From positions 12,090,832-12,154,831 of the forward strand of contig JABAKD010000026.1 in the NCBI GenBank assembly GCA_012845835.1: DNA of 64,000 bases, in the 5' to 3' direction. The notes under the pieces are model-generated. The model did not search any database. It was not told the origin of the DNA and saw only the letters and a list, made by a program, of their open reading frames with translations. Positions 3,532 to 64,000 of the stretch are shown here, piece by piece. Numbering within the stretch: position 1 is the first letter of the stretch; each line of letters opens with the position of its first letter. The position numbers and the translations under genes were made by a program. The stretch is from Undaria pinnatifida (lineage: Eukaryota > Sar > Phaeophyceae > Laminariales > Alariaceae).

Positions 3532-5802
3532 ATGCCTACTTCCTCGAGCAGCACCAGATGGGTTTTTAGCACGCAAGGGGTAGACGGTACGCTCACGATC
3601 GGCGCGTGTTTCGTCTTCCTTGCCTACGTGTTGCACCCCGCCATCGAGTCCGCGTACAAGAGGGTCAGAGCCTACCGCGCATGGCGAGCCATCGAGAAGA
3701 GCCAGTCAGTCGAAGTTACGAACTATCACATGATGGAAGAGGTCTTCGGCGGGCGCGGAAAATGGGATGCAGCGCGAGTGATAACTGTGCTGTTGGCCGT
3801 GTTTTCGCTCGCCTCTTGGGGTCTGGAGCTATCGGTTGACCTGGCCTATTTCGAAGGCGATGCGGACCTCCTCAATCGACCACCGCCAGTGACGGTTAGG
3901 AACGTCAATGGTACGAAGGATTGGCAGGTGAATCCGTGCACGTGGTTTGTGGCTAACCTTTTGATACCAACAGCTGTAGTCGGTTTGATTTCTCACACTC
4001 ACGTTTGTGTGGTCATTCGTTCTCAATATTGAGCATGAGGAACAGGTTCAAGGAATGAGATTGGGTGTTGAGAAGGCTTCGTTTGGCTGCGTCTAACCCC
4101 ACGCCCCGCTGCAAACACACATTTGCATGTTCGTGTTCACCTGGTTGCCTGTCCACCTTTGTGACAGGTAAAATCCAAGGAGATGTTTGACCAAGCCAAC
4201 TGGAGGGATTTGCCTAACATGCTTGAGGATGGCGCAAAGTCGAGGTATTATATGAAGTCCAATACGGGATATGAAGGTCCTGTGAACGGCGCCATCAAGG
4301 TCGCGTATTGGTACACAGAAGCATCAAGAACGCCGAGCCAATTTTACTACATTGGCGGGAGGAACCCGACGGTGAAAAACCTCGAGTGCACCGACAACGA
4401 AAGCCCCGACGTGAAGAACGTGTACCATGGAGACGAGACAAGGTGGGGAAGCGTGTATGAGTGCGTGAGAGGACCCAGCCTGACGAGTGACTTATTAGCA
4501 CAGTACGAAAGGAAAACCATATCCCCCCCCACAATAGTTATGACGAAATCCGACGGCAAAGTTTTCGTTGTCGTCGAGGAGAGCAGCAGCTACCCTAGCT
4601 TTATGTACTCGGTGTGGACCGTCGGAAGCGTAGACGGTGCCTCAACTGAGCTGCAACACGAGTTCCATATCGCGGCCACCATGCGGCTCGCGGAAGCGGT
4701 GGTCACAACAATCGTGCACGGCGAGATAACCGGCGGAGGTTGTTTCGGGTTGCTCAGGAAGTTCAGCGAAACTCTCCAATTTGGAGAAGACGTATTCCTT
4801 CGAGCGTCGCCGTTCGGTGAACACCCGACCGGCGACATCGTCCAAATACAAGAGTTCGAACACATAGAGGTCGGACTGGTGATAAGCGCTAACGCGTTAG
4901 GTTGTTTTGTCTGTCTTATGGTGCTGACGGTGATTGGTATCATGTGGTTGTTCGTGTTGGGCTCCAGCGTAGGAATGGACGTGTACGATCGGGACGAGCT
5001 TATCCGTGCGGTTTCCATGTCCGGGACGACGGGGGGTTGTACCTTACCCTCTGCGATGCGTATTTTTGTTCGAAAGGAGGACTCAGGTGAAATAAAGGTT
5101 GTTATCAAGGATTCACGTGGCGCTCGGACTGGCTGTGAACGATTCCTCAGAAAAGGAAAAAACGTGGTCAAATGCGCCGTCCCTATTTTGAAGACCACTG
5201 CCGTTGCACCGTGCAGCGATGATTTCGCAGATGCTTCCGAAGCGACGGAATCACGGGAGGTCGTGCTGGAAGGAATGCGGGTGCGTCTAAGCAAAGCCGC
5301 GTCGGATCCCAACCGATTTTTCCGCTGTCCGGCATCTGTTTCGTTGATTGCCTCTCCCGTTATTTCGAGTTGCACTTCGTTGCCAGGGGTATCAGCGCGT
5401 TTTCCTTGGCAGCCGGCGTCGGTAGAGCGGGTTGACGGTGGGTACAAAGGGGGAAGAGACGAACCAGTTGTCTTTGACACCTTACATTGCTCAGGCGACA
5501 GAATAGATAGTGTGTCAAATGCATGCGTTTCAGCTGTTGCCGCTCGGCCGGGATCGTCATCCACTTCGCCGATTTTTGGTCGGGGGGGATTGTCGGCACG
5601 CTCCGGAAATGGTCGCCCTTCCGACGTTGCGGTTGCGGAACAGCTGGGCCGTGGTACCGACGTGACACCGGGATTGTCGCCGTTGCCCCCTTTATTGAAG
5701 GCAGATGACCTTACGGTAAGAGCCCCGATATCGGCTCATCTTGCGCGCAGTTGTGATGATAAAGTTCTAGAAGATACTCGATTTCCTGGAGATGCGTGCT
5801 AA
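3532..5802 (+). CDS. Unrecognised three-segment membrane protein, copy A
   Basis: Two exons are inferred, 3532-3927 and 4168-5802, joined in phase 0 (donor CAG|GTGAAT, acceptor GTGACAG), giving about 676 residues. The join is chosen because copy B at 39673-41879 breaks at the same codon and both second exons then open with VK[ST][KR]E. Hydrophobic segments lie near residues 20-38, 82-102 and 368-397. Between the second and third is a domain of about 260 residues with a sequon (NGT, residues 126-128), three cysteines shared with copy B (ECTD, YEC, GGGCFG) and the motif EESSSYPSF. After the last segment comes GMDVYDRDELIRAV and a serine-rich, poorly conserved tail of about 280 residues. The start aligns with that of copy B, eight codons before W-V-F. 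I do not recognise the family. The topology (large outer domain, inner tail) is inference. Differences from copy B fall mostly at third codon positions, which argues that both are real genes. Confidence 0.8.
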
Positions 5803-9480: not shown

Positions 9481-9999
9481 ATTTTCTTGGCCGTAGTAGA
9501 GAAGAAGCAGTTATGTTATGTCCACCAGAACCCCGGATAGCAACTGACAATCTGACAATGAAGGTGCGTGCCTTGAATATATTTGCTGACTATCCCGAAT
9601 AGAAAACGCTAACCTATCCTACGAAAACGGTCAATTACCTATCAAATCAGATAATTCCAGGCATTTCATAGCCGTACATAATTAGTCCACATTCTTCTTT
9701 CTATATAGCCAGAGTTTAGACTGTGCAGGAGATTTGAAGGAGAGGTGATAGATTTATTTGCAGAATACCAACAAAGAGAAAAACCGGACGTGTTAATAGT
9801 AGTTGGGTGATAGCAATTCTGACTGCGCCACCTTCATCGACGGCGAAGGAGAAATGAACCGTCCGTGAAGAGAATAGAAGTAAGGGCCCAGCAAAAAATA
9901 TTAAATAGTGTACGACTCACCCGTACATACGTAGACTGTTTGTTGCTGTATTTGAACAAACATTACATTGTTGCATACCAGGTACTACATATTAATTAT
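9481..9999. other. No gene recognised
   Basis: AT-rich sequence with one copy of the near-palindrome TACCAGGTA (9976-9984) just before the first R1 copy. Confidence 0.5.
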
Positions 10000-10190
10000 A
10001 AAAATCAAAATATAGTCCAGCTATGAGATCGAATACTTTGTCGAAACTCATCTTTGCAAGTTGTGCGTGATACTCCGATCGCGCGAATTACGGGTTGTGT
10101 GTCGTCATTAAATATATAGGTCGGCGACCCCCCTTGCAATTACAGAGTGACTATCAGGGTCAACAGGGTGATGGTAGGCAGTCTGTGTGC
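10000..10190 (+). repeat. R1 repeat, 5' part
   Basis: R1 is recognised by TGAGATCGAA, CTCATCTTTGCAAG, GTGATACTCCGATCGCGCG, GGTCGGCGAC and CAGGGTCAACAGGGTGATG in that order. This copy stops in the CAGTCTGTG segment, where it meets an inverted copy tail to tail. Confidence 0.75.
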
Positions 10191-10199
10191 AGCACATGT

Positions 10200-10600
10200 T
10201 GGGTTGCCCCGCCCGTTTCCTCCCTTCCCGCTCTCTCTTGTTCAAACCCAGGGCCCCCCACGCCCTAAAAACTCCGCCCTCCGGTTATACGACTTACAGG
10301 ATACACTTGCTTGATAAACTGACGCATTTCGTTCCATCGCTGTCAGATTTTGTCCCCTCAAAAACGGGTTTTACAGTGTTTCCGGGCACAGATTGACTAA
10401 CATTAGTCTAATCTGTTGACCCTGGTACAAGCTAAAGTGTAGTTCATAGGTGAGTCCCCGACCTATATTTACAATTAGGACACACACCCAGTACTACGCG
10501 CGATCGGGGGATCACACATAGCTTGCAAAGATTAGTTTCGACAAAATCATCGATCTCACAGCTGGTTGCAGTGCTTTTTTTTTTTATTATAGACGATAGT
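10200..10600 (-). repeat. R1 repeat, near full length, inverted
   Basis: In reverse it contains the whole R1 order, including the more distal AAACCCGTTTTTGAGGGGAC and the G-rich GGAGGGCGGAGTTTTTAGGGC end. It forms an inverted pair with the copy at 10000-10190. Confidence 0.75.
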
Positions 10601-10687
10601 CTATATTCGTAATACGACTTTAATAAATGCATGGGCATATTGAACACCATTCGATTGTATATCTGGTACTAGGGATTGTTATCAAAG

Positions 10688-10945
10688 ATAAAAATACAAC
10701 CCACCTGTGAGACCGAAGACTTCGTCAAAACTCATTTTTGAAAGCTGTGAGTGATGCTCCGATGGCGCGTACTACTGCTGTGTGTGCTCTCGTTAATAAG
10801 GATATAGGTCGACGACTCCGCTTGGAACTACACGGAGTGTTGTAGCTTTTACCGGGGTCAGCCGGATGCATCATGGTGTGGATCAAAATTTGCGCGAAAA
10901 CCATGAAGTCAGTTTTTGAGGGGGACAGCATTACAGCTAGATGTG
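10688..10945 (+). repeat. R1 repeat, diverged
   Basis: It keeps TGTGAGACCGAAGACTTCGTC, CTCCGATGGCGCG, ATATAGGTCGACGAC and the TTTTTGAGGGGGACA segment with many substitutions. It ends before the G-rich part. Confidence 0.65.
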
Positions 10946-11659
10946 GAATGCACCAGTGTGTTATGCATATCCTATACTAAGTATTGTGTAGTCGTAGTAC
11001 TCAGGGAGGGTTGCGGGGAGAGTATAGGGTGGGTAGGTCGCAAAAACAAATGCGAGCTTGCTGCTTGCGTACTTTTAGTATAATATTAGTAGTATGTGAT
11101 GGTAGGGGCGGCGGGGAAGGGGGCGTACTCTGTTTGTGCATGGCCGTGTAGTCGTATCACCATAGACACTCGCATCACTACCCTGCCGGGACGGAGAACG
11201 TAGGGTTTTCACTGACTAGGGAGGCAGGCGTCAACTTAAAATTCAAGACCATATTAATGAACTGGAGCTGCTACCACATGGGAGACTCGAAAGGTAAAGA
11301 GATGGTATCACCTGTCGCGTAGTGTATGTAACTCTGTCGGATTATGACTTCTGGTGGGGCGGATGGGGAGGAAGGAGGGAGGGAAGGGGTGGAGGTGTTA
11401 TTAGGGAGGGGGGGGGGGGGGGGATTAGGAGGGGGGTGGGGGGGAGCTGTTAGCCGAGAGGGCGGAGGGTTATTAGCCGGAGGGGGGGCGAGCGAAGGTG
11501 GATGGGAGCACAATATTCTACATGTATGTTCAACGCAGATAGATGCCCAATATTAAAGAAAATCTATGACGTGAATGGGAGCAAACTATACGTCGTGTTG
11601 TTTTCCGTTGATGTTATAAATAGTATTGGTTTTTGGTTTCGGTAAAAGACGAAAACCTT
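10946..11659. other. No gene; G-rich tract at 11344-11500
   Basis: The stretch 11344-11500 is almost pure G/A on the plus strand, with G runs of up to about 16, and could form quadruplexes. Open frames across it are low-complexity glycine or proline artefacts. The rest shows no recognisable feature. Confidence 0.5.
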
Positions 11660-11974
11660 TATCTTTATTTTTCTCACACTTCGACTTTACAGCCTCTGGA
11701 CAAGCCGTGGTCACAGTTGTCGTCCCTTCTTTCCCCCCGGTCCTGCCTTCAATTTTAATCGCGCATAGATAGGGTACAGCAATCCTCCGACTGCTCGTCG
11801 ATTTTCCATCGGGTGTTTGTTGCTAACTCACGCTCTCGCACTTTCCGCCAGTCAATTTGTGCTCAAGAAAAAGCCTCAACGAACCAATACACGGATGCAC
11901 TTTGCGGGGCTCGAACTCACGAACCTGACCTATACCAGGCTCGAGGATAACCTGATGCGCCACCGGGGCGACGG
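11660..11974 (-). mobile_element. SINE-1 copy
   Basis: Read on the minus strand, the tRNA-like 5' end has an A-box-like TGGCGCATCAGG and a B-box GAGTTCGAGCCCC, followed by the SINE-1 body (GTGCATCCGTG, GGCGGAAAGTGCGAGAGCGTG, ATCGACGAGCAGT, GACCACGGCTTGTCCAGAG) and an A-rich end. Confidence 0.75.
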
Positions 11975-11989
11975 ATACTATACCATGAC

Positions 11990-12934
11990 GATTGATTTAT
12001 AGTGACTTGTGTGGGGAGCTTGCGAAATACTGCTGCTGTAGTAGCTAAATACATTACTCAACTGTAGTCTAAATGTATATATATATTAATATTATGAATG
12101 TACATGTCGTTCCCCTTCAGCAACAACAGCAGTATTGTGCAAAAATTCGAACCCCTAGAGCTCACCAAATACATTATTAGTGTTTGAATAGTTTACGTTG
12201 CCCCGCTTTCGATATTATTACTCCCCCCCTTTTAAGTCATATTTTCGAATCTTATTATTTTCTAACCCAACTGCGAGTGATAAATGTAAATGTAAGCAAT
12301 ATACGTAGTATGGCATGTGTCACTGTGCCAGTTTTCACCCATTTCGAGTACAGCAGGTAGTGTTAGAGCAAAACTCTGGAGCACTTCTTTTGCGTCTCTG
12401 GTTTTTGTACTGCGACCAACCGAGGCGCGACCAAATACCTTGAAATGCATGACAGCGAAACACTGTACGTATGCAGTAGTAGTAGTGCATCTGTGCGCGG
12501 TAATGTAGGGCAAATGTCTGGGCACTTCACGCTACGCGGATAATGTATTGAATACCAAGCACCAGGTATCATACCAGTTATACCCCACCACAGCAACAAT
12601 TTCCGAGATCTCTGTGTGACAACGGTGTCAAGATGATACGCCGATTACGCATCGTACTTATTGCTCCATGCCGGCGCAGCCTTTCCCTCTAGTACCAGCA
12701 GCAGTGGTGTGACCGGCTGTGGCCCTCCCTGGGGCATGTCTGAATCAACAGTAGAAAGGAGTACTAGTACAACCAGCTATTGATAGCTGTCCGTTCGTGC
12801 TTTTCATGCACCAGACCGGCTGGTAGGCTTCACAGGTGGGTTGCCACTAACAACATTTTCGTCGTCACGCCATCAGGCCGTTGTTAGCGGAGGCAGTGAT
12901 TTTCATTCAGTGAGTGGGAAGGCTGCATATATAT
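11990..12934. other. No gene recognised
   Basis: Mixed sequence with short AT repeats (TATATATATTAATATTATG). No supported exon or shared repeat. Confidence 0.5.
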
Positions 12935-13145
12935 TATAAAAATTAGAATACACTGGACCAGCTGTGAGATCGAAGATTTCGTCGAAACTCATCTTTGCAA
13001 GCTGTGTGTGATACTCCGATCGCGCGCATTACGAGTTGTGTGTCCTCATTAAGGATATAGGTCGGCGACTCCCCTTACAGCTACAGTGTAGCTATCAGGG
13101 TCAACAGGATGATTTTAGTCAGTCTGTGCGCGGAAACTATACATA
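12935..13145 (+). repeat. R1 repeat, 5' part
   Basis: A clean match to the first 210 bp of R1, from AATACACTGGACCAGCTGTG to GTGCGCGGAAACTATA, where similarity stops abruptly. Confidence 0.8.
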
Positions 13146-14227: not shown

Positions 14228-14295
14228 TGCCGCTATAGGTGTACAAAGGACAATCGTTTGCGTCTCCGTGAACGAAGACAGCATAGACTAAGTTA

Positions 14296-14640
14296 TAAAG
14301 AATGAAAATACACTCCAGCTGTGAGATCGAATGTTTCGTCGAACCTCATCTTTGCAAGCTGTGTGTGATACTCCGATCGCGCGTATTACGGGTTGTGTGT
14401 CCTCATTAAGGATATAGGTCGGCGACTCCCCTTGCAACTACAGTGTAGCTATCAGGGTCAACAGGGTGATGTTAGTCAGTCTGTGCGCGGAAACTATAAA
14501 ACCCGTTTCTAAGCGGGACAAAATCTGACAGCTATGGAAGGAAATGCATCCGTTTATCAATCAAGTGAATCCTGTAAATCGAATAGCCGGCGAGGGGAGG
14601 GCGGAGGTTTGAAGGACGTCGGGGCCTGAGCATATATATA
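14296..14640 (+). repeat. R1 repeat, about 345 bp
   Basis: It covers R1 from AATACACTCCAGCTGTGAG through CTGACAGCTATGGAAGG to GAGGGCGGAGGTTTGAAGG, stopping just before the variable G-rich end. Confidence 0.8.
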
Positions 14641-18960: not shown

Positions 18961-18962
18961 TC

Positions 18963-19137
18963 TATGTATGCATGTATGTAGGTAGGTAGGTAGGTATGTA
19001 TGTATGTATGTATGTATGTATGTATGTATGTATGTATGTATGTATGTATGTATGTATGTATGTATGTATGTATGTATGCATGTATGTATGTATGTCTGAA
19101 CCAGGTAAGTATGTACGTATTTTTGTATGAATGTATG

Positions 19138-19171
<34 letters not shown>

Positions 19172-19345
19172 TGTATGTATGTATGTATGTATGTATGTAT
19201 GTATGTATGTATGTATGTATGTATGTATGTATGTATGTATGTATGTATGTATGTATGTATGTATGTATGTATGTATGTATGTATGTATGTATGTATGTAT
19301 GTATGTATGTATGTATGTATGATTGTATGTATGTATATATCTATG
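18963..19345. repeat. (TATG)n microsatellite
   Basis: About 380 bp of TATG tetranucleotide, interrupted once at 19081-19140. All six frames give tyrosine-valine-cysteine-methionine or histidine-threonine-tyrosine-isoleucine artefacts. Confidence 0.95.
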
Positions 19346-19733
19346 TACTACGTATTTTTGTATGTAGGCATGTACTAGTGTGTGTTTATGTATGTAATGT
19401 TTTACGTCGCCGAGCTCAACCGTACATCGCACAACGCACACTGAAGCGATCGCGACTTTTTTTGGGGTCGACAAGATGGATAATAAGGAGAATCCGCTGG
19501 TTCAATGCCCAACTCTTAGAGTTTGTAGCGGGAGGTCGATTTGAGGTGGTGTAGGCATGGGGTTAGTTTGGTCATACGGAAATTCGGAGACGCTGGCACC
19601 ACACCGTGCACGGACCTACTATTACTATTCCCCCTTTTCTCGGTGACATATTGTGTCAGTACGCAGCCCAAATTCGCGTTATGTGATGTATGGTGGTTGA
19701 ATGAGCTGTTGTTAGGGAAATGGCACGTACCTC

Positions 19734-19818: not shown

Positions 19819-19844
19819 AGGCTAAGTAAACAATATTATACAAA

Positions 19845-20365
19845 CAAAAATACACGCCAGCCGAGAGATTGAAGATTTTGTCGAAACTCATATTTTTGCA
19901 AGCTGTGTGTGATACTCCGATCGCGCGTGTCACGGGTTGCGTGTCGTCATTAAGGATAGAGGTCGGTAACTCCCCTTGGAACTATAGAGTGTGACCATCA
20001 GGGTGTAACAGGGTGATGTTAGTCAGTCTGTGCGCGGAAAGTTTTAGAGGGGGACAAGATCTGACCGCTGTGAAAGGAAATGCATTAGTTAATGAAGTGT
20101 ATCCTGTAAGTGGTATAACCGGCGAGGAGAGGGCGGAGTTTTGAAGGGCGTGGGCACATGGGTTTTAACAAGAGGAGACGGGGCGGGGGAGGAACGGGCG
20201 GGGCAACACAATCTGTGCGTGGGAACTGTAAATAAATTTGACGGTTTTGGCAGAAGTGAGGAGAGGTCGGAGTTTTCGAGGAGGTGGGTGGGCGGGGGGG
20301 GGTATATTGGAGCAGCGGCATTGGTAGATAACGAGGTGATTTCGATGTTGAGTGGGGCGCTTGAG
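19845..20365 (+). repeat. R1 repeat, long copy with G-rich end
   Basis: It starts at AATACACGCCAGCCGAGAG and contains the full R1 core and the G-rich end, in which the segment GTGCGTGGGAACTGTAAA-TAAATTTGACGGTTTTGG recurs as an internal sub-repeat. Confidence 0.75.
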
Positions 20366-20934
20366 CAATAAGAGGGGAGCGGGAAAAAAAGTATAGTCTA
20401 TGGACTAGTAATATCATGTATATTGTCCGGTTATTTTTCACTACCTCAGAGAAACATTTGCACATAAAAATATACCCTTCCTGGTGGGTGTTTTCCGGCG
20501 GCATTATTACAAGGATAGGAATGAGGAGCATGACAAAAGCCGCCATCTGGTCAAGCTCCTGACTACAGTAAGCTACTTCGTTAGCGGTTGTTGTATTATT
20601 GGCATGCATGCGTTCTCGTGCTCATCCTGATTCAAGTAGAGCTATAGCTAGCTGCAGTAGTAGTACCTGGCAGTAGTTAGTAATACAGAGTTGTTCAGTT
20701 TTTTATTTTTCATTACAGTATCGATACTCACTCGTCAGCGTAGAAACCATGCATTTATTTTTCCCGGATCATTTTACTACGTACTACATCTCGTACGACG
20801 TGCCTTGCAATTCCTCCACGTACCCTATACAGTGCGCTTTACCGGGTGGCGCCTCCTGTTACGTAACATATGCAGTATATTGTTCTTTCTTTATCGCACT
20901 GTAAATAACAGGCTGGTGAATGTCGTATATATTC

Positions 20935-21540
20935 TAAAATTTGTAATACACTCCAGCTGTGAGATCGAATATTTTGTCGAAACTCATCAGATATCTTTGC
21001 AAGCTGTGTGTGATACTCCGATCGCGCGTATTACGGGTTGTGTGTCCTTATTAAGGATATTGGTCGGCGACTCCCCTTGCAACTACAGCAGTGTAGCTAT
21101 CAGGGTCAACAGGGTGATGTTTGGCAGTCTATGCGCGGAAACTATAAAACCCTTTTCTGAGGGGGACAAAATCTGACAGCTGTGGAAGGAAATGCATCAG
21201 CTTCTCATGTGAATCCTGTAAGTCGAATATCCGGTGAGGGGAGGGCGGAGTGGGGGCCTGATTTCGATCAGAAGGGGGGCGGGAGTGGGGAAGGGGGGGG
21301 AGGGGACGGGTGGGGCAGGTCTATTTGTGCGTGGAAACTATAAAAAATTCTTGTGGGGGAGAGGGAGGAATATGGCGGGGGGGGGGGCGGGGGCGGGGGG
21401 GGGAGGGGGTGGCTGTACGCGTGGTGCTAGTTCTAGGCGATGGTGCGGGTGGTGGGGCGTTGGGGACGGGGGTGGGTGGGAATTGCAGCAGCGGCATGGA
21501 CGGCTTTGAAACGATAACGAGGGGATATCCAGGGCGTGGA
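20935..21540 (+). repeat. R1 repeat, long copy with G-rich end
   Basis: Full R1 core with a six-base insertion after AAACTCATC. It continues into 21230-21480, which is very G-rich on the plus strand (runs of 5-9 G) and holds another GTGCGTGGAAACTATAAA sub-repeat. Confidence 0.75.
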
Positions 21541-23085
21541 AGTGTTTATTACTCAGGCGGATTTCGTATATATAGCAGAACATAATACGAATATAATAGG
21601 TTGGAGAGCGCAGGATATGATATATTAAAGGATGTGTATGATTCATTATCATACTTCAAAGCACTAAGCGAGGGGCGGCTCTTCTTTCCAGAGGGTAAGC
21701 AATGATGTATAACCTATTTCGAAGCGACAGGTGATACGTACTCGTATCTAGAAACCAAACAACACGTACCCTACGTAGTGCGTAATACCTGCTGATACCA
21801 CCTCCTTTTCTCGTAAGCAGTAAAACCCTTTATATTGCTGTTGCGGCGTCGTACCAGTGCGTTTCCTTCTCGTGTAGTGCCCTGTTCCATGTTGTACGAC
21901 GATGAAGATGGTGCTAGGGTTACGGCCGCGCAGCCTTTTTGTGTGTTGATCCGCCGTTCATCGTCTTAGGAAACTCAGCCCGCTCGTTCGCACGTGCCCT
22001 CTTCCTCATCGCCTTAAGTAACCCAGCCCGCTCCTTGGCACATCCGTGCTCTTGTTGACACTCATTATTCACTCGGTTCCCCTTCTCCCCCGATCGCCCT
22101 AAAAACAAAGTTGTCGTCGCTGCTGTTGCGTGCGGTGCCTTTTGGCTTTGATCTGAAGAAACCTTGTTTCCATTATATACACTTTTGCAAAGGGTTTTGG
22201 ATGTGGTCAGAGGTGGACGGATGTCATGATTGGGGGCGTCTGTAGCCGCCCGGCTGGTCGAAATCGGCGCCGGGGTGGTCGGGTTTATTGGGTTTTGAAG
22301 GGCCAGCAGACACACACACAAACACAAACAGACATCCACCTGCAGTAATTCAGCGCAATTAAATGAAGCATACATACCTGGTACATTTTTTCGAAATTTT
22401 TTCTCCCAGACAGCCTCAACACAGCTGACCGTATATACGGATAGACTCCGTCACAGCGCTGTCGCTTCGCTCCTTCGCCTGCTCCTCAGTATTTTTCTAG
22501 CAGGTGGTGCAGTTCATGAGGGACTTTCATCAGTCCCCTTTGTTCTCGCCCTCAGCACGATGGCGTGAGTTGGTGAAAAATATGCCGAAACAAATCCATG
22601 TACCCAGGGAACAAAATGAGGACCCAGCATGTCCGGAAGACAACTAAGTGAGGGTAAAAAGTCCAACGGGCTGAGCTGAAACGTGCAGCGTTGACTATGT
22701 CTCATTCAACGAACAAGCGTTATCACCACATATTATACAATAGCGCCATTATGTTGTTGTTCTCACATTAACCCGCATAACCAAGTCCGTGGTCACAGGA
22801 TAGGCTCCAGTCACTGTGGAGCCGAGGAATATCTCAGGGAAAAACACAAACAACCCAAGTTGGTACACCCAAATATCACAGATGACGCATCACAGCTGAA
22901 GCAATTCGCAATTCATGGCTCCACCAGAAGCATATAAAAGTGAAATCGGGAGTCGGTCTACAATGTGCCAGGTCCATACCGGCGCTCATTACTCGCGCAT
23001 GGAAAAACCGACTATACCGCTTGGTGCCCAAGAAAGACTACCACGTATAGACTATATTATACGTAGTATCTATCACTACGTAGAA
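21541..23085. other. No gene assigned; minus-strand open frame 22375-21920
   Basis: A 151-codon minus-strand frame (22375-21920) starts MYASFNCAELLQ, has a hydrophobic cysteine-rich segment and ends in a basic, repeated ERAxxxKxM region. It has no family motif and no splice support, so it is not called a gene. The rest is featureless, with a TACCTGGTA at 22375. Confidence 0.3.
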
Positions 23086-23086
23086 C

Positions 23087-23375
23087 CGGTCGCCCCGGTG
23101 GCGTATCAGGTTATCCTCGAGCCTGGTATAGGTCAGTTTCGTGAGTTCGAGCCCCGCCGAGTGCATACTCGTATAAATTCGTTGGGACTTTTTCTTGTGG
23201 ACAAATTGACTTGCGGAAAGCGCGAGAGCGTGAGTTAGCAACATTCGATGTACAATCGACGAGCAGTGGGATTGCTGAACCCTATGCGCGATAAAAATTG
23301 AAGGCAAGAACCGGGGAGGAGAAGGGATGACACCTGTGACCACGGCTTGTCCAGAAGCTGGAAAGTGAAAGTGTG

Positions 23376-23414
<39 letters not shown>
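23087..23414 (+). mobile_element. SINE-1 copy with 37-bp poly(A) tail
   Basis: This is the best-preserved plus-strand copy. It has a 5' CGGTCGCCCCGGTGGCG with an A-box-like TGGCGTATCAGG, a B-box GAGTTCGAGCCCC about 50 bp on, then the body and a run of 37 A (23378-23414). The A tail fixes its orientation and its retroposition through RNA. Confidence 0.85.
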
Positions 23415-23415
<1 letters not shown>

Positions 23416-23779
23416 GCACGACAGACGCAAGTCAACTGGAGAACAGAAACAAAGAAAACGAAAGAAGATAGAGGAGAGGAAAGAAAAGAGAAGGGAGAGA
23501 AACACATACAACCAAAATTTGAGAAGGAAACGAAAGAAAAGAAAAGTCAAGAAAAGCAAAAAAAGACAAAACAAGAGGAAGCAAGAAAGGAAAATAGCAA
23601 AGTGATATAAAACCCTGATAAAGTATACTGCAATTCCACAGGGAGTCGCCGACCGATATCCGTTCTGCGAAAGCAACTGAGTTAAATCGACAAACGACGC
23701 GTATGAAAATACGTGGAAGTGTGGTGAGCTAAAGCTTTATTTTTCCCCATCCGCCGGAGGATAAAAAAAAAAAAAAAAA

Positions 23780-23893
23780 AATCCTTCTTGAGGACACACA
23801 CCAAGTAATACGCTCGATGGGAATATCACATATACAGCTTGAAAATATGAGTTTCGGCGGAATCTCTTCGATCTTACAGCTGGAGTGTGTTAG
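23780..23893 (-). repeat. R1 repeat fragment
   Basis: Read in reverse it gives CTCCAGCTGTAAGATCGAAG, a CTCATATTTTCAAGCTGT-like stretch and GTGTGTCCTCAAGAAGG; only the first 110 bp of R1 are present. Confidence 0.6.
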
Positions 23894-23904
23894 TGTGTTC
23901 TTAT

Positions 23905-24217
23905 ATTTTTTTCTTTTTTTTTTTTTCGCGCACTTTTACTTTCCAACTTCTGAACAAGCTGTGGTCACAGGTGTCGTCCCTTCTCCCCCCCCGGTTCTTG
24001 CCTTCAATTTTTATCGCGCATAGGGTTCAGCAATCCCACTGCTCGTCCATTTTTCATCGAGTGTTGCTAACTCACGCTCTCGCGCTTTCCGCAAGTCAAT
24101 TTGTGCACAAGAAAAAATCCCAACGAGTTTATACGAGTATGCACTCAGTGGGGCTCGAACTCACGAAACTGACCTATACCAGGCTCGAGGATAACCTGAT
24201 ACGCCACCGGGGCGACC
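23905..24217 (-). mobile_element. SINE-1 copy
   Basis: Reverse orientation with a T-rich tail at 23905-23926 and the tRNA-like head ending at 24217 (GGGGCGACCG). It is very close to the copies at 23087 and 25336. Confidence 0.85.
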
Positions 24218-25244
24218 GGCTGCATGTATTACAAGGCCTCCGCAAAGATGCCGCATTCACCGGCACTCAGTCTTCGGGTAGGCCATGGAAGAAGTTGGAA
24301 TTGTTCCACCCAACACAAACAAAAAAATTGAAATTGAAAGGAAGGCCAAGAATTTCATCCGAAATCAATAGTTCGGCAGGTGTGCGGTGTGCAGCAGTAC
24401 ACCAAAATCAAGGAGAAATATCGATTGCACTGGCTACGTGTACTGGAACGTATGGGTATACTGTACTGCGTACACACTCGTATAATATGTGGGATCGGTC
24501 GTACTCAGACCGGTGACAATGTAAAGCCGAAAGTTTGAATTCCCGAACATACCAGCCAACCTTTGGCTGGACGGTGGTCGCCTATGGGCCCAATTCTGTA
24601 GATTTTGTTTAGGAACTTTCCATAATTCTGGACAAAATCGATTTCACGCGGCGATGTTGGTCAACATTTCTCAAGCAGATCGTGGATTAGACGCGTCGTA
24701 ATTTCGTGTTCTCCATACACTCTGCTCGACAAAATCAGCGCCAGCGCTGCGAACCCTGAACGTGGTGAGTTCGTCAGGGGCTCCGACCCCCCCTTGGTGC
24801 GCAGCATTCACTCTGCGGCCGGTGATTTGCGGCGGGCGCCGATTAGGCTTCTGTTAAAAACACCTTTGGCGGCTGGTGTGTAGAATACTGAGAGAAGAAC
24901 TCTCCGTCGTCTCCCAACGGGCGAAACAGAGTTTGCTTGAGAGAATGTGACGGAAGACCACAGGACAACACAAGCAACCTTCCGCGCCCTTGGGCATGGA
25001 TTGAGATGAACTCTTCAGCGCTGCCACCTACACGCATGAGCCCTCACAGCGAAGAGCAGTGACTATGGGTTGTCTCTATCTCGAGATCGATGGTCAATCG
25101 TGTTTGTTGGACAACGTTGATCAAATCTTGATGGAAATTGACTAATTGACCTGTTGGACCGCAGGACAAAAAAACAGAGCCAAAAAAATACATACCATGG
25201 TATACCACTGGTATACGTATATTCATCGTTTTCTTATTAGTCTA
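24218..25244. other. No gene recognised
   Basis: No supported exon. The region ends with two adjoining near-palindromes (TACCATGGTA and GTATACCACTGGTATAC near 25195-25216). Confidence 0.5.
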
Positions 25245-25798
25245 CATATTAATCGTTTTCCTCCCATAGCGATGTTTGCCGGAATCTTTCAGCAAAGAAC
25301 TCCAAAAACAAGTTTGGAAACGTTTCGCATGATCTTTTTTTTTTTTTTTGCACACTTTCACTTTCCAGCCTCTGGACAAGCCGTGGTCACAGGTGTCATC
25401 CCTTCTCCCCCCCGGTTCTTGCCTTCAATTTTTATCGCGCATAGGGTTCAGCAATCCCACTGTTCGTCGATTGTTCATCGAGTGTTGTTAACTCCCGCTC
25501 TCGCGCTTTCCGCGAGTGAAATTGTCCACAAGAAAAAGTCCCAACGAATTTATACGAGTATGCACTCGGCGGGGCTCGAACTCACGAAACTGACCTATAC
25601 CAGGCTCGAGGATAGCCTGATACGCCACCCCGGGGCGACCGATCGATCTATCTCCTGCCCACTCTTTTGTGTGGTGAGGCCTATTTTGTTGTACCCCGTA
25701 CGCTATCATTTCACTTGCTTTACCTTGATGAATTTCAACTATTAATACTGTTTTAAGTCTTGTCTAGTCACCGCTGTTTCACTGTCTGTCACCATATA
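25245..25798 (+). repeat. Segmental duplication, copy carrying a SINE-1
   Basis: It matches 26513-26758 along its whole length except for the SINE inserted at 25336-25644. Both copies begin ATATTAATCGTTTTCCTCCC and end near TTTCACTGT(C/T)TGT(C/G)ACCATATA. Confidence 0.85.
25336..25644 (-). mobile_element. SINE-1 copy with GATCT target duplication
   Basis: The T-run at the left is the tail. GATCT stands at 25331-25335 and again at 25645-25649. The sister segment has a single GATCT at 26597-26601 with no insertion, so the target duplication is read directly. Confidence 0.88.
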
Positions 25799-26512
25799 CG
25801 AAAAATGTGTCCCCCCCGCCCCCACACCCCCCACCTCCCCCCCAACCCATCCCAACCTCACCCCCTCGAACACTCCACCCTCTCTTTACTCACTGATTGT
25901 ACGACTTACCCCAGGATATACATGATAAACTGATGTATTATTTCCAAAACCATCACATTTATCCCCTCAAAATAATGTATAGTTTCCAGGCACATATTCA
26001 GCTGCCCCACACGCCCCAACCCCCCCCCCCCCCGCCCCACCCCCCCCCCCCCCGCCCCCAATAATATGCTGGTGCCAAAACCGTCAGATTTATCCCCTCG
26101 AAACGATTTATAGCTTACATGCACAAATTGCCCCCTTCCCCCCCCCCCCCCCCCCCCCCCTCCAAACCCGCTCGCTTTTGATCAAAACCAGGCCCCCACG
26201 TCCTTCAAAACTCCGCCCCACCCCCCTCACCGGTTATTCGACTTACAAGATTCACTTGATAAAAGGATACATTTCCCTTCACAGCTGTCAGAGTTTGTCC
26301 CTCACAGAAACGGGTTTTATAGTTTCCGCGCACAGACTGACTAAAATCATCCTGTTGACCCTGATAGCTACACTGTAGTTGTAAGGGGAGTCGCCGATCG
26401 AGGACACACAACTCGTAATGCACGCGATCGGAGTATCACACACAGCTTGCAAAGATGAGTTTCGACGAAATCTTCGATCTCACAGCTGGAGTGTATTTTC
26501 ATTTTTTATAAT
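25799..26512 (-). repeat. R1 repeat, long inverted copy with C-rich tracts
   Basis: Read in reverse, the R1 core (26512 to about 26180) is followed by a G-rich end made of at least three sub-repeats (each with AAACNATTTATAG, TGACGGTTTTGG or close relatives) separated by runs of up to about 20 G (C on the plus strand at 26012-26055 and 26139-26160). It lies between the two copies of the segmental duplication. Confidence 0.75.
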
Positions 26513-26758
26513 ATATTAATCGTTTTCCTCCCATAGCGATGTTGCCCGGAATCTGTCAGCAAAGAACTCCAAAACAAGTTTGGAAACGTTTCGCATGATC
26601 TATCTCCTGCCCACTCTTTTTGGTGGTGAGGCCTATTTTGTTGTGCTCTCGTACCCCGTACGCTAGCATTTCACTTGCTTTACCTTGATGAATTTCAACT
26701 ATTAATACAGTTTTAGGTTTTGTCTAGTCACCGCTGTTTCACTGTTTGTGACCATATA
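26513..26758 (+). repeat. Segmental duplication, empty-site copy
   Basis: This is the copy without the SINE. CGCATGATCTATCTCCTGCC runs uninterrupted where the sister copy carries 309 bp of SINE plus the 5-bp target duplication. Confidence 0.85.
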
Positions 26759-39672: not shown

Positions 39673-41879
39673 ATGTCTAACTTCTTAAGCAAGGAAATGT
39701 GGGTGTTTAATACCAAAGGCGTAGACGGCACCCTTACGATTGGTTCGTCGTTCGTCTTCCTCGCCTACATCTTGCACCCGGCTATCGAGTACGCCTACCG
39801 GAGGGTACGGGCCTACCGCGCTTGGCGAGCCATTGAGAAGCGCCGGTCCGTCGACGTGACTAACTATCCCATGGTGGCAGAAGTTTTCGGCGGTCGCGGC
39901 AAATGGGACGCCGCGCGAATAATAACGGTACTGCTCGCCTTCTTCTCGTTAGCCTCCTGGGGTCTAGAGCTGTCGATGGATCTGGCATATTACGAAGGCG
40001 ATGCGGATCTTCTCAATCGGCCACCCCCAGTGTTAATAAGAAATGTCACTGGCAGGCAAAGCTGGCAGGTATGCGGCCTGTTCATAACTGCAGGAAATCC
40101 GTCCAAACCTAGTAATCGATCCTTTGTTTCAGGTGCATGACCGATTGGGAATCGATTCTTATGTTCACTAGAGAGGGTCGTATTCCGGATATCAAGTAGG
40201 GTTTTAAGACTGTTTGATTTGGATGAGTATGAGCTCAAGTCTGACGGTACGTCCTTGTCCCTTCGACTTTCATTTTTCATTGTGTATCGCCCCTCGGGTG
40301 GAAGGTAAAAACTCGGGAGCAGCTTGGCGACCAAGACTGGAGAGATTTGCCCAACGTGTTCGAAAACGTTGCCAAGTCGAGATATTACATGGAGAGCACC
40401 ACGAAATATGAAGGCGCAGTCAACGGTGCCATAACCGTTGCCCATTGGTACACAGAAGCAGCGATAACTCCGAGCCAGTTCTACTACGTGGACGAAGCTA
40501 ACGCCACAGTGAAGAGCCTCGAGTGCACTGACGACGATGAACCCAGCGTCATGGACGTACATCTTGGCGACGACATAAAGTGGGGAACCGTTTACGAGTG
40601 CGCAAAAGGACCAAGTCTGACGGACGACTTGAAGTTAGTTTCCGGCCGCAAGACCAATTCCCCACCGACAATAGTTATGACTAGGTATGATGGAAAAGCA
40701 TTCCTCATCGTGGAAGAGAGCAGCAGCTATCCTAGCTTTCTGTACTCGGTTTGGACCGTGGGACTAATTGCCAGTGCATCAATTGAGCTCAAACACGAAT
40801 TCCATATCGCGTCCACCATGCGGCTCGTGGAGGCGGTGGTGACAGGAATCGTGCACGGCGAGATATCCGGTGGAGGTTGTTTCGGGTTGCTCCGGAAATT
40901 CAGCGAGACTCGAGAAGCGTGCGACGACGTACTATTTCGAGCCTCGCCGTTCGGCGAGCACCCTACCGGAGATACCGTGCAAATACAAGCCTTAGAGCAT
41001 GTAGAGGTCGGGCTTCAAGTAGGCCTGAACGCGTTGATTTGTTTCGTGTGTCTAATGGTGCTGGCCTCGATCAGTATCATGTGGCTATCCTCCTTGCGTG
41101 CTAGCATCGGTATGGACGTGTACGACCGTGATGAGCTTATCCGCGCTGTTGCCATGCCCCGTACTGCGGCGGGTTGTAAAGTTCCGTCAGATATGCGTGT
41201 CTTTGTTCGTAAGGAGGACTCTGGCCATATAAGGGTCGTAATTAACGACGCAAGTTGCGGTCAGAGTGGCTGTGCACGGATCCTCCGAAAAGGGGGTGGC
41301 TATGCCACAGACGCAGACCCTACCCCAACGGCCACTGGCGTGGGTTCAGGCAACGACGGCTCCGGGCATCCCGTGGTTCCGATGCAATCACGGACGGTGG
41401 TGCTTGAGGGAGTGCGGCTACGCCCGGGTAGAGCCTTACCAGGCCCCAACGGAAACTTCCGATATCCGACATCTGTGTCACTGACTGCCTCCTGCGTCGC
41501 TTCGAACGCCAGTTCTGTGGCTGGGACGCCAGCCCGTCATCTTTCTCCGCCACTGCCTGCGGCGCAAATGGTCCTGGGGCATAAGGGCAGACGAAGTGTG
41601 TCCGTATTAGTTGACCCCCTGGATACTTCCAGTGGCAGTGAGAATAGAAAAACAGAACACACCGAGGTGAGCTACGGTAAAAATAATTTGGATGATGGTG
41701 CATCAGGCGCATACACCTTGCCCAACGGTGTGTCGGTCATGTCCGAATGTCTGTATCCTTCGGACATAGAGATTCCGACACAGCTGAGTCGAGGCCACGA
41801 GAGTGGGGGGTTTTGGTGCCCCCCGGGTAGAATGTCAGCCGAAGCTACCGAAGGGCTGACGAAACTGTCTCCGTGTTAA
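39673..41879 (+). CDS. Unrecognised three-segment membrane protein, copy B
   Basis: Exons 39673-40068 and 40305-41879 join in phase 0 (donor CAG|GTATGC, acceptor GTGGAAG), giving about 656 residues. The first exon is 132 codons, exactly as in copy A, and is nearly collinear with it through the block YRAWRAIEK. Membrane segments lie near residues 20-38, 82-102 and 367-396. The outer domain keeps the sequon after the second segment (here NVT), adds NAT, and shares the three cysteines plus one extra (REACDD). The motifs RASPFGEHPTGD and GGGCFGLLRKFSET are conserved. The tail after GMDVYDRDELIRAV is similar only in patches (SR.VVLEG, TSVSLTAS). An ATG 43 codons upstream at 39544 is in frame, but the alignment with copy A favours 39673. 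The intron sequences (240 and 236 nt) are not alike although their position is, so the duplication is not recent. The function is unknown. Confidence 0.82.
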
Positions 41880-47978: not shown

Positions 47979-50900
47979 GGCATAGAGGCAGTAGGTACCA
48001 ATCGTACCTGAACGTCAAACCTTTTTTAGATGAGGGTCGAGAAAAGATGGGAAGCCCTCACTTTGAAGTACATGGCCACTAACAACTGCGAATATCACAG
48101 TAATTTTCGTTCCCAGCTTGGTCTTGATATCCACATGATGCCTAGACGGCGAAATACATTATTCCAGTTCACGCACGAGAGTTCCCACGCTAGTCGAGCC
48201 CCATCTATAATGACATAATCCTGTGCCTCTGTGTGTATCAAGTAACAATCAATTGTTGTGAATGGCAGCAAACGCCTCCAGGTCCTGTATCAAATGACCG
48301 AAGACGTTAAGTTTATCACAGCACGCAGAGGAAACAATACTTTGACAGACTCCGAAAGCGCACCGAGAGTTGTCGACACATAAATGGCAGTGTGTACCAA
48401 TCGTGCCTACACGTCGAACCGTTTGTTGATGAGGGCCAAGAAAAGATGGATGGTCCTCACGACAAAGTATCTGGCCACTACCAACGCGAAACGTTACATG
48501 AGTTTTCCTTCCAGCGGGGTTTTGGTGCCCGCATGACTAGACGGCCAAATAGATTAGTACTCCAGTTCACACAAGAAAGATAGAGTTCCCACGTTGGCCG
48601 CGTCCCACCCATGATGATGTATTCTTGGGTCTCTATGTGTAACAAGTAACAACCAGAGGTCGTGACCGGTGGCGAACGCCCCCCGGTCCTGTATCAAACT
48701 ATCGAAGACATTTTTTTTTCACAACACGCAGAGAAAAGAATAGTTTGACAGACTCCGAAATCGTACAGGCCGGTTAAAGTAAGTGTAAATAAATTATCTC
48801 CCCCGCGAATGCCGCTGGCAATATCTAGTCAACGAGTGAACAATTGTTGACATACTGGCCCCCATGGGCCAGTAGTCAAGAGGGTGACATCTGGCCAGTT
48901 GAGTTTTACGGCCTCTGGCATCTGGCCAGTTGAGTTTTTGCTCGACACGATTATTTCAATCATATTCAGGCTTCTTTCCAGGCGGGGGCGAAACAAACTC
49001 CGCCGAATTTGGCACGATCCGATTGTAAGTAGTCTAAGGCATGTCTGCACAAATTTCCGCGCAAAAAATCGAAGAACTGACCTGCCTGTGTTCAACATCA
49101 CGCAGACTCCAGCGAAAAAACCGGATCCTACACTAAAACCAAGTCATTTGAAGGAAATAACGTATCTTACTTTTTTGTACGGACGAACGTGCATATATAT
49201 GTCCACGCCGATTTTAAGAGATAGACCCTGAGTGTTCGCACACGTGTTCTACATACCCATCCTGAGGTCTTCCCTCCGTTCTTTTTTTCGTTTTAATTAT
49301 TTTCGCCCAAAATGTTTGGGCTAATGTGGCCCACATTTTCCGAAAAAATCTTAGCTGACAAATAATCAAGCAAGTATCCACAGAAAAAGCAAGGTCGCCG
49401 CAAGGGCATATATAAGTGCGTGTGCAAAAACTCACGGTACGAATCGGAAAAAAGGCGTGGACATTCGCCGGGGAATACATTTATGTGTTTTAACGTGAAC
49501 CACCCTGTATCGAGAGTAGAGTAGTAAACACATACATGGTATAGAGGAAATATGTTTCAATCGTGCTTGCACGTCAAACCTTCTGCTCATGAGACCGCCG
49601 GAAAGATAGATGTCCCTTACAGTGAGGTTTTTGGTCACTCCCACGCGAAATACAACATTAGTTTTCGCTCCCAGCGGGGATTTGATATACGCATGACTAG
49701 GCAGCTAAATACATTACCCCAGCTCACACAAGATAGTTCCCACGTCAGCCGCGTCCGACCTATTATGATATATCCCGTGCCTTTATGTGTAACAAGTACA
49801 CGAGACAACGACATATATATCAACCACGCGCAATAATATACGCTTGCATGCTTCCGAAAGGAGCTGTCAAGCACAGCGCAGCCAGAAACCTCTCGGCTAA
49901 TGGTCTACATTCTCCCTCGAGCGCTGTGAGGAGCTTGACCAACTGCGACTAGATGGTAGTGATCCCCATGAGGCGTCAGGTCGCCCTGACCATGCGGTCC
50001 TTTTTTTCAGTATCTGAACAAGTCCAGGAGGGCTTATATTCATTTCCCTCGTATAACGTTATGTAGGCGCAGAGCAAGCTTTTCACCTGCCCCTCACACA
50101 AACGTCGGAATTTGCTTGCCCAAATACACCATGTACGAAGTATACCTGGTACTCGCATATAATATATATTTACGTATTCGTGTAATAAATAAATACATAC
50201 ATTTCTTGTCAATTATAGCAAACATCAGCACATGAGATTCCGTAGTACATGGATAAGCGTTTAATGCCACCCCGTCTTCCCGTGTACACAACGCGCGGAC
50301 CCGGCGTATGATGCGTTAGTGGGTTTACCTGCTGCACATGTTCTAGATTCTCCAGTCGGGGAGGCGTCCGCCTCGACAAAAACGAATGAGCAACGCCATG
50401 GCATAGATATATCAAGGACAGTGTTAACACAAAGACGACAATGGGCGGTTATTAGCTTAGGGAGCCCCGCCACGCAGATTGATCCAAAGCCAAACCCTTT
50501 CACGCCTGCCGTGGCAGGCGTCACCCTTCACAGCGTTCGACCTCATTAACCCGTCCCCACGTCGAACGCACCTGAACGAAGAATGCGAAGACCGTTTTAA
50601 GTGCACAAACGATAACTTCGACCGTTGTGCCGATGGTGACAGCCGTTGATCCGTATACAATCGCCAAGCTCAGATGGAGTAGCGACGTTTGGGTTAGAGA
50701 AGACGGCCCCTGGCCAGTTATCCCCCAAGCCAAAATCGCGTAAACCGCTATGTGGAGAAAGGCACTGCCCACGCTTACGACCACTAGCGCTTCGGTATGG
50801 AAATTGGCCAGACCATTTGTGCTGAGCAGCGTCCTGAAACGACGAGCAGCTGCGGCAGCACGATGAACCGGGCGATGTTCCTCAGTAATAAGTAGAAGGG

Positions 50901-63245: not shown

Positions 63246-63523
63246 ATTTCTCAGTTGCGTACCAACACGACCGCCTCAGCAACGGAGGCAGGCGCCACAG
63301 CAACAACAACGAAGCACGCTATCCACCCGCTGATGCGATACCGGGACGAATTCATGTCACTTGATTCTTCTGTTGATACCGCTTACCACTACGTACGACC
63401 TTCGCATGACGCAGCCTAATGACAGGAACGATTTCTCCCAAAAAATTTCACGTCGAAGAAGGATTTCCTGTATTTACACACCCTCCCCATACCATGAGTC
63501 AGACAAAAGCGTGTGGTTAATAA

Positions 63524-63705
63524 TATAAAAATCAAAATACACTCCAGCTGTGAGATCGAGGATTATGTCGAAACTCAATATTGCAAGCTGTGTGTGATAC
63601 TCCGATCGCGCGTATTAATGGTTGTGTGTCCTCATTAGGGATGCACGTCGGCGATTCCCCTTGCAACTACAGTGTGGCTATCCGGGTTAACAGGGTGATG
63701 TTAGT
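63524..63705 (+). repeat. R1 repeat, 5' part
   Basis: A clean R1 copy from AATACACTCCAGCTGTGAG to GGGTGATGTTAGTCA, cut at nearly the same place as the 12935-13145 and 10000-10190 copies. Confidence 0.78.
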
Positions 63706-64000
63706 CATTGCGTCATGAGCGTGCATGCTTTTTCTCGTATCTACATGCACGAGTACAAACAATGTCAATGTGCACAACACGTATAACACCACCCTCCTCG
63801 AGACCGGGGACGCAGCCACTCGTAATGCTGATGTGTGTCTTTTTCTGGCGTAGTAATCGTGATCTCTACCTCCTCGTTTTAGTTATGCGTGCGCTTGCCT
63901 CATCTATCCACGTACTTGCGTACGCGTCACCGAAAACCAATAAACAAATGCGCTACTATGATACCTGCCGCGGTACCATGGGGATTTTTTTTTGAGTAAG
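63706..64000. other. No gene assigned
   Basis: A 95-codon open frame (63708-63995) runs nearly to the window edge without a recognisable motif. It could be cut by the edge, but there is no support for it. Confidence 0.3.

What the first reader, a model, noticed from the sequence alone, without database searches (positions are those of the whole stretch)
3532..5802. Unrecognised membrane-protein family: copy A, with a conserved outer domain and a fast tail
The outer domain between segments two and three is almost collinear between the two copies, with shared cysteines and a shared sequon, while the approximately 280-residue tail is alike only in short islands. That pattern suits a sensor or adhesion-type protein whose cytoplasmic part diverges. 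No known family came to mind, so this is the best candidate in the window for an undescribed protein family.
Basis: partly seen in the sequence, partly recalled or inferred. Interest (0 to 1): 0.72.

Follow-up and report, generated by a model that had tools for sequence, protein, structure and literature searches.

The report
Clustered family of unknown membrane proteins
The two genes are real and belong to a set of at least twelve related gene copies in one large genome, probably a kelp's, encoding three-pass membrane proteins that match no family we could search and that most likely sit on the cell surface and pass signals inward.

Summary
Copy A (3532-3927 + 4168-5802, 676 aa) and copy B (39673-40068 + 40305-41879, 656 aa) are open two-exon genes with the same phase-0 intron, and residues 1-456 are under purifying selection (dN 0.19, dS 0.98).

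They are not a pair. The same genome holds at least 12 loci, 11 with open frames and 1 broken: 9 open copies in 0.51 Mb around the window (two with a shortened, chimeric tail), one open and one broken near 15.7 Mb, and one intronless copy on another contig.

Two details change. The sequon is not in the same column. The outer domain is not the slow part: dN is higher there than in the TM1-loop-TM2 hairpin in 55 of 55 pairs of members; the tail is faster still in 55 of 55.

No credible match was found in Pfam, PDB sequences, PHROGs, NCBIfam, or viral or prokaryotic contigs. Two AlphaFold attempts failed (pLDDT 38 and 36), so the fold is unknown. No eukaryotic collection could be searched, so lineage restriction is untested. 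Best reading: a receptor-like three-pass surface protein with a cysteine-bearing outer domain and a docking tail. The family is well supported; the function is inferred.

The parts
3532..3927 (+). Copy A exon 1: N-terminus, TM1 (res 20-38), basic loop (39-82), TM2 (83-101), first 30 residues of the outer domain
   Evidence: donor CAG|GTGAAT
3928..4167 (+). Copy A intron, 240 bp, GT-AG, phase 0
   Evidence: same position in 10 of 10 open two-exon members, absent in L011
4168..5802 (+). Copy A exon 2: rest of outer domain, TM3, juxtamembrane block, tail, stop
4168..4893 (+). Copy A outer domain, exon 2 part (res 133-374); Cys 206, 231, 324
4894..4965 (+). Copy A TM3 (res 375-398)
   Evidence: Hydropathy maximum 2.81
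4966..5139 (+). Copy A conserved juxtamembrane block (res 399-456, motif MDVYDRDELIRAV ... RIFVRKED)
   Evidence: Mean share of commonest residue 0.67 over 11 members, outer domain 0.61
5140..5799 (+). Copy A fast tail (res 457-676)
   Evidence: Identity A/B 65 of 185; mean conservation 0.39 over 11 members, 0.46 without L007 and L010
5254..5361 (+). Conserved island in the tail (res about 495-530; family pattern LEGVR..R.R..PGP.GNFRYPTS..L.ASPV)
   Evidence: Mean conservation 0.59 over 11 members, 0.69 without L007 and L010; alignment
39673..40068 (+). Copy B exon 1
40069..40304 (+). Copy B intron, 236 bp, same phase and position, sequence unlike copy A's; acceptor reads AAG
40305..41879 (+). 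Copy B exon 2

Best explanation
Copies A and B are members of a tandem-expanded gene family that encodes three-pass surface membrane proteins. The N-terminus lies outside, a basic 44-residue loop between TM1 and TM2 lies inside, a domain of about 270 residues with conserved cysteines lies outside between TM2 and TM3, and a poorly conserved tail lies inside. Most likely the outer domain binds something outside the cell (wall polymer, neighbour or microbe). The conserved inner parts (TM1-TM2 loop and post-TM3 block) would couple to a shared partner, and the tail would carry docking or phosphorylation sites that differ by copy. Shown: the gene models at sequence level, the family, the clustering, purifying selection, the conservation profile. 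Inferred: topology, surface location, receptor-like role.
For: Family of at least 12 loci. Open frames and the same intron in 10 of 10 two-exon members. Three hydrophobic segments at corresponding places in 10 of 11 members. Loop 39-82 net positive (+1 to +6) and outer domain net negative (-8 to -33) in 11 of 11, as the positive-inside rule expects. Cys 206, 231, 324 in 11 of 11; a further pair, Cys 166 and Cys 367, present together in the same 3 of 11 members and absent together in the other 8, as expected of an added disulphide with both ends on one side, in an oxidising compartment. Sequons 35 against 22 expected by shuffling in the outer domain, 12 against 13.5 in the tail, summed over 11 members. 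Hairpin slower than outer domain in 55 of 55 pairs, tail faster in 55 of 55.
Against: No experiment and no expression data. The fold is unknown: AlphaFold mean pLDDT 38 (2 rows) and 36 (11 rows). No catalytic or known signalling domain matched. The tail's own charge does not support an inside tail: it is negative or zero in 8 of 11 members. The sequon excess is modest and comes from four members (L005, L006, L009, L011); copy A has 2 against 1.6 expected, and L007, L008 and L010 are below expectation. Three cysteines in all is an odd number, so one would be unpaired in most members; the three members with the extra pair may descend from one event. L011 shows no TM2 at the cut-off used, and a fourth, weaker hydrophobic stretch near residue 298 (six of 11 members, 1.39-1.69) leaves a four-pass topology open. 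Surface versus inner membranes is not resolved.
Confidence: 0.45

Rival explanations
1. A pore-forming or channel-accessory protein in which the outer domain gates or assembles the complex, like the two-pass P2X or ASIC channels with an extra N-terminal helix.
For: TM2 - about 270 residues outside - TM3 - tail recalls the layout of P2X subunits (recalled, not from a call). The best-conserved 20-residue block (301-320, 0.84) lies in the outer part and overlaps a mildly hydrophobic stretch in six of 11 members.
Against: The P2X model PF00864 finds nothing in this genome at E <= 1; that search reads exon by exon and none of its 14 control genomes passed the cut-off, so its power here is unproven. 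Pfam scans of 11 members (exon 2; L011 whole) show no channel family. Only 3 cysteines are common to all members in the outer domain.
Confidence: 0.15
2. A structural or adhesion protein that ties the plasma membrane to the wall, with the tail binding cytoskeleton.
For: Cysteine-bearing outer domain and no catalytic domain matched. Brown algae have integrin-like proteins without the animal partners (passages of PMC8307928).
Against: No integrin, lectin, fasciclin or other adhesion model matches. The slowest parts are the hairpin with its inner loop, which fits signalling or assembly as well as anchoring.
Confidence: 0.2
3. A component of internal membranes (Golgi, ER) that serves secretion or wall-polymer synthesis; the domain faces the lumen.
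For: Lumenal and outer faces leave the same marks: sequons, paired cysteines and charge bias.
Against: No enzyme domain matched in the Pfam scans; copy-specific tails are less expected of a housekeeping part (inference).
Confidence: 0.15

Closest known systems
Leucine-rich-repeat receptor kinases of brown algae
   Same: Membrane proteins with an outer domain; independently evolved in the lineage (passages of PMC8307928)
   Different: No leucine-rich repeat and no kinase match in any of 11 members (exon 2, L011 whole); three predicted passes
Putative transmembrane receptor gametologues of the brown-algal sex-determining region
   Same: Membrane proteins proposed for gamete recognition (passages of PMC12592211)
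   Different: Their sequences were not seen; relation to this family, and whether this contig is a sex chromosome, untested
CHASE / Cache type sensor proteins (TM - outer sensor domain - TM - inner part)
   Same: Layout of an outer domain between two helices with an inner part after the second (recalled)
   Different: No CHASE or Cache match; no kinase or cyclase after TM3; an extra N-terminal helix
P2X / ASIC type two-pass channels
   Same: About 270 residues outside between two helices (recalled)
   Different: PF00864 not found in the genome at E <= 1; extra N-terminal helix
Families of unknown function gained in brown algae
   Same: The Saccharina japonica paper reports 1,240 gained families, most of those newly gained in Phaeophyceae classed as of unknown function (passage of PMC4421812)
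   Different: Whether this family is among them could not be tested

Membership tests
P2X receptor (PF00864) | Profile match of the whole subunit | tested here: not met
   No match at E <= 1 in the own genome, searched exon by exon; no match in scans of 11 members or of whole copies A and B
Receptor kinase | Kinase domain after the membrane helix | tested here: not met
   Pfam scan of 11 of 11 open members (exon 2, with all of L011): no kinase (8 of them also)
CHASE / Cache sensors | Profile match of the outer domain | tested here: not met
   Pfam scan of 11 members, E up to 10: no such match; remote fold similarity not excluded
CHASE / Cache sensors | PAS-like fold of the outer domain | tested here: inconclusive
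   AlphaFold mean pLDDT 38 and 36; Foldseek gave 69 matches, none at E <= 0.001
The family defined here | Same intron position and phase, three outer cysteines, three hydrophobic segments | tested here: met
   By copies A and B. Across the family: intron 10 of 10 open two-exon members (L011 has none), cysteines 11 of 11, three segments over the cut-off in 10 of 11
Brown-alga-restricted family | Present only in brown algae | not testable with these tools
   Only viral and prokaryotic contigs could be scanned; no eukaryotic collection

The most novel reading that the evidence does not exclude
The cluster encodes a previously undescribed class of cell-surface receptors of multicellular brown algae, with a new outer fold and copy-specific tails, used for self, partner or microbe recognition.
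Probability: 0.15. Interest if true: 0.75.

Novelty: new variant of a known kind. Interest (0 to 1): 0.35.

Why it matters
Brown algae became multicellular on their own (recalled), and a review seen in passages (PMC8307928) says it is not known whether their receptor kinases interact with cell wall components. A clustered family with a conserved membrane core and changing tails is a concrete, testable candidate for a surface receptor there, if the genome is indeed a brown alga's. If it lacks that role, it is one of many lineage families of unknown function.

Tried and rejected
Two-copy reading: rejected, at least 12 loci. Pseudogene or chance frames for A and B: rejected by dN/dS and open frames. 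P2X: no match by sequence (with the limits told above). Weak profile hits, taken as chance: UBA_RNF31 0.1, DddA-like 0.046 and 0.035, Nsp2_AV 0.047, MAGI_u5 0.1 (all below the curated cut-off), two PHROGs at 0.34 and 3.8, LubX in PDB from 0.28, GMF gamma 0.45, ubiA_proteo 0.036, conj_TIGR03758 0.14. Four-pass topology with a helix near residue 298: disfavoured because the co-occurring Cys 166 and Cys 367 would lie on opposite sides; not excluded. Viral origin: no relative in viral contigs in 3 scans. Structure prediction: two jobs, both too poor to use; Foldseek on the second: 69 matches, none at E <= 0.001. Mixed exon-1/exon-2 alignments A5-A8 misplaced rows and were dropped; A9 was used instead, without exon-1 rows. 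Neighbouring open frames: 10 scanned against Pfam, one chance-level hit. Seven literature searches and passages of four papers showed no description of such a family; they were keyword searches of one open-access library and prove little. A search of the genome with exon 1 alone and with the post-TM3 block alone did not complete; L011, which contains both parts, found only the family.

Full report
What was checked. Copy A is an open gene of two exons, 3532-3927 and 4168-5802 (676 residues), and copy B is 39673-40068 and 40305-41879 (656 residues). Both introns (240 and 236 bp) start GT, end AG and lie in phase 0 at the same codon; they do not align with each other, whereas the exons do. Over residues 1-456 dN is 0.19 and dS 0.98 (NG86), so both copies have long been kept as proteins; over the tail dN is 0.66 and dS 1.39 on an uncertain alignment.

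The outer domain is collinear without a gap (187 of 272 identical), the tail is alike in islands (65 of 185 aligned residues), and the cysteines at 206, 231 and 324 are shared. The sequon is not the same column: A has N126 and N209, B has N124 and N198. Against the whole family the outer domain is not the slow part. Mean share of the commonest residue over 11 members is 0.72, 0.79 and 0.80 for TM1, loop and TM2, 0.61 for the outer domain, 0.67 for residues 399-456, 0.39 for the tail and 0.59 for the island 495-530. Gaps count against a column, and without the two tail-less members the tail is 0.46 and the island 0.69. dN is higher in the outer domain (131-374) than in residues 1-130 in 55 of 55 pairs, and than in residues 399-456 in 44 of 55 (35 of 55 if TM3 is included); the tail exceeds the outer domain in 55 of 55.

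The family. The window lies in a genome of 511,146,479 bp in 68 contigs, at C33:12090832-12154831. Six-frame searches of that genome with copy A, L011 and L008 give at least 12 loci (the tool says counts are lower bounds). Nine open genes lie between 11.85 and 12.36 Mb on C33, eight of them on the same strand; two of the nine (L007, L010) have a shortened exon 2 that runs into an exon-1-like piece. L008 (open) and L012 (broken, with stops) lie near 15.7 Mb; L011 lies on C26. The 10 open genes on C33 have the same intron (236 to 10,962 bp) and no internal stop; L011 has no intron. In a tree of 11 proteins A and B are sisters (98/97), L004/L005 and L007/L010 are close pairs, and L011 is far out on a long branch (midpoint root; 3 of 8 inner branches well supported, 3 open). 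Pairwise dS runs from 0.04-0.10 (L007/L010, by region) through 0.13-0.42 (L004/L005) to saturation, so duplication has gone on for a long time.

Topology. Hydropathy gives maxima near residues 20, 83 and 378 in 10 of 11 members; in L011 the 1.3 cut-off shows the first and last but not the second. A weaker one near 298 (1.39-1.69) appears in six members, and copy B has one at 276 (1.33). The loop 39-82 is net positive and the outer domain net negative in 11 of 11; the tail is negative or zero in 8 of 11, so it gives no support of its own. Cys 166 and Cys 367 occur together in L006, L008 and L009 and in no other member, which suggests a further disulphide and puts both on one side, against a crossing helix at 298. 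Sequons are 35 against 22 expected in the outer domain and 12 against 13.5 in the tail; the excess comes from L005, L006, L009 and L011. On balance this favours N-terminus out, loop in, domain out, tail in. It does not tell plasma membrane from Golgi.

Relatives. Pfam at E up to 10 over 11 members (exon 2; L011 whole) gives three chance-level names, and whole copies A and B one each. NCBIfam, PHROGs (exon 2 of A and B only) and PDB sequences give nothing credible. Viral contigs (3 scans) and prokaryotic genome contigs (2 scans) hold no relative confirmed by tblastn at E <= 1e-3. P2X is not found in the genome at E <= 1; that search reads exon by exon and its 14 controls included none over the cut-off, so it is a weak negative. 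No eukaryotic collection could be searched, so these negatives say only that no relative was seen among the prokaryotic and viral contigs and the curated libraries scanned. AlphaFold with 2 rows reached mean pLDDT 38 and with 11 rows, L011 from TM2 as query, 36. Both are unusable, and the Foldseek result on the latter carries no information. The second model was mostly strands followed by helices, which I do not lean on.

Organism. Not established. The total length is close to the published Undaria pinnatifida assembly (511,280,173 bp in 114 scaffolds, GC 50.14%; passages of PMC7058681); 133,694 bp and 46 scaffolds fewer would fit an assembly stripped of its smallest pieces. The window has GC 48.7%. 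That is an inference from size alone; marker searches did not complete (Tried and rejected).

How it may work. I think it most likely that the outer domain binds an outside partner, that the conserved inner loop and post-TM3 block couple to a common inner partner or hold the helices together, and that the tails (P, G, S, T and N make up 0.31-0.53 of the last 200 residues, against 0.30-0.38 in the outer domain), with one conserved island, carry docking or phosphorylation sites that set the copies apart. The steps from binding to signal are inference. Channel, anchor and lumenal-factor readings remain open.

Novelty. As a kind this is a clustered, multi-copy family of multi-pass membrane proteins, which is common (recalled). 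As a family it matched none of the libraries searched. The Saccharina paper (passages) reports 1,240 gained families, with most of those newly gained in brown algae of unknown function, so an unnamed family there would be expected rather than startling.

Noticed in passing
window 52540-53001 (-), perhaps 50521-53750 (-): Exon of a choline-transporter-like protein (PF04515, E 3.2e-8, above the cut-off; no PDB sequence match at 0.01); two neighbouring minus-strand frames look like further membrane exons but have no credible match.
   Followed up: partly
L010:1510-2703 and L007:1474-2679, with remains downstream (L010 about 4200-4876; L013 about 3835-4425): Two young copies whose frame runs from a shortened exon 2 straight into a second exon-1-like piece (residues about 87-133); a degenerate exon 2 lies downstream in both, so a gene plus a decayed neighbour seems to have been duplicated as a unit.
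   Followed up: partly
C26:14221674-14223488 (L011): Intronless member on another contig, most diverged; either a retrocopy or the state before the intron was gained.
   Followed up: partly
window about 9985-10927, 12918-13141, 14274-14628, 19832-20218, 20921-21344, 26107-26516, 63512-63707: Interspersed repeat family of about 200-400 bp, both orientations, about 72-91% alike (that listing was cut short).
   Followed up: no
window 11658-11980, 23081-23419, 23885-24219, 25335-25643: Second interspersed repeat of about 310 bp, 82-95% alike.
   Followed up: no
window about 18962-19554: Long simple-repeat tract that reads as YIHT/CMYV repeats on the two strands.
   Followed up: no
window 4590-5735 (-): Open frame of 381 codons antisense to copy A exon 2; probably a shadow of codon usage.
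   Followed up: no
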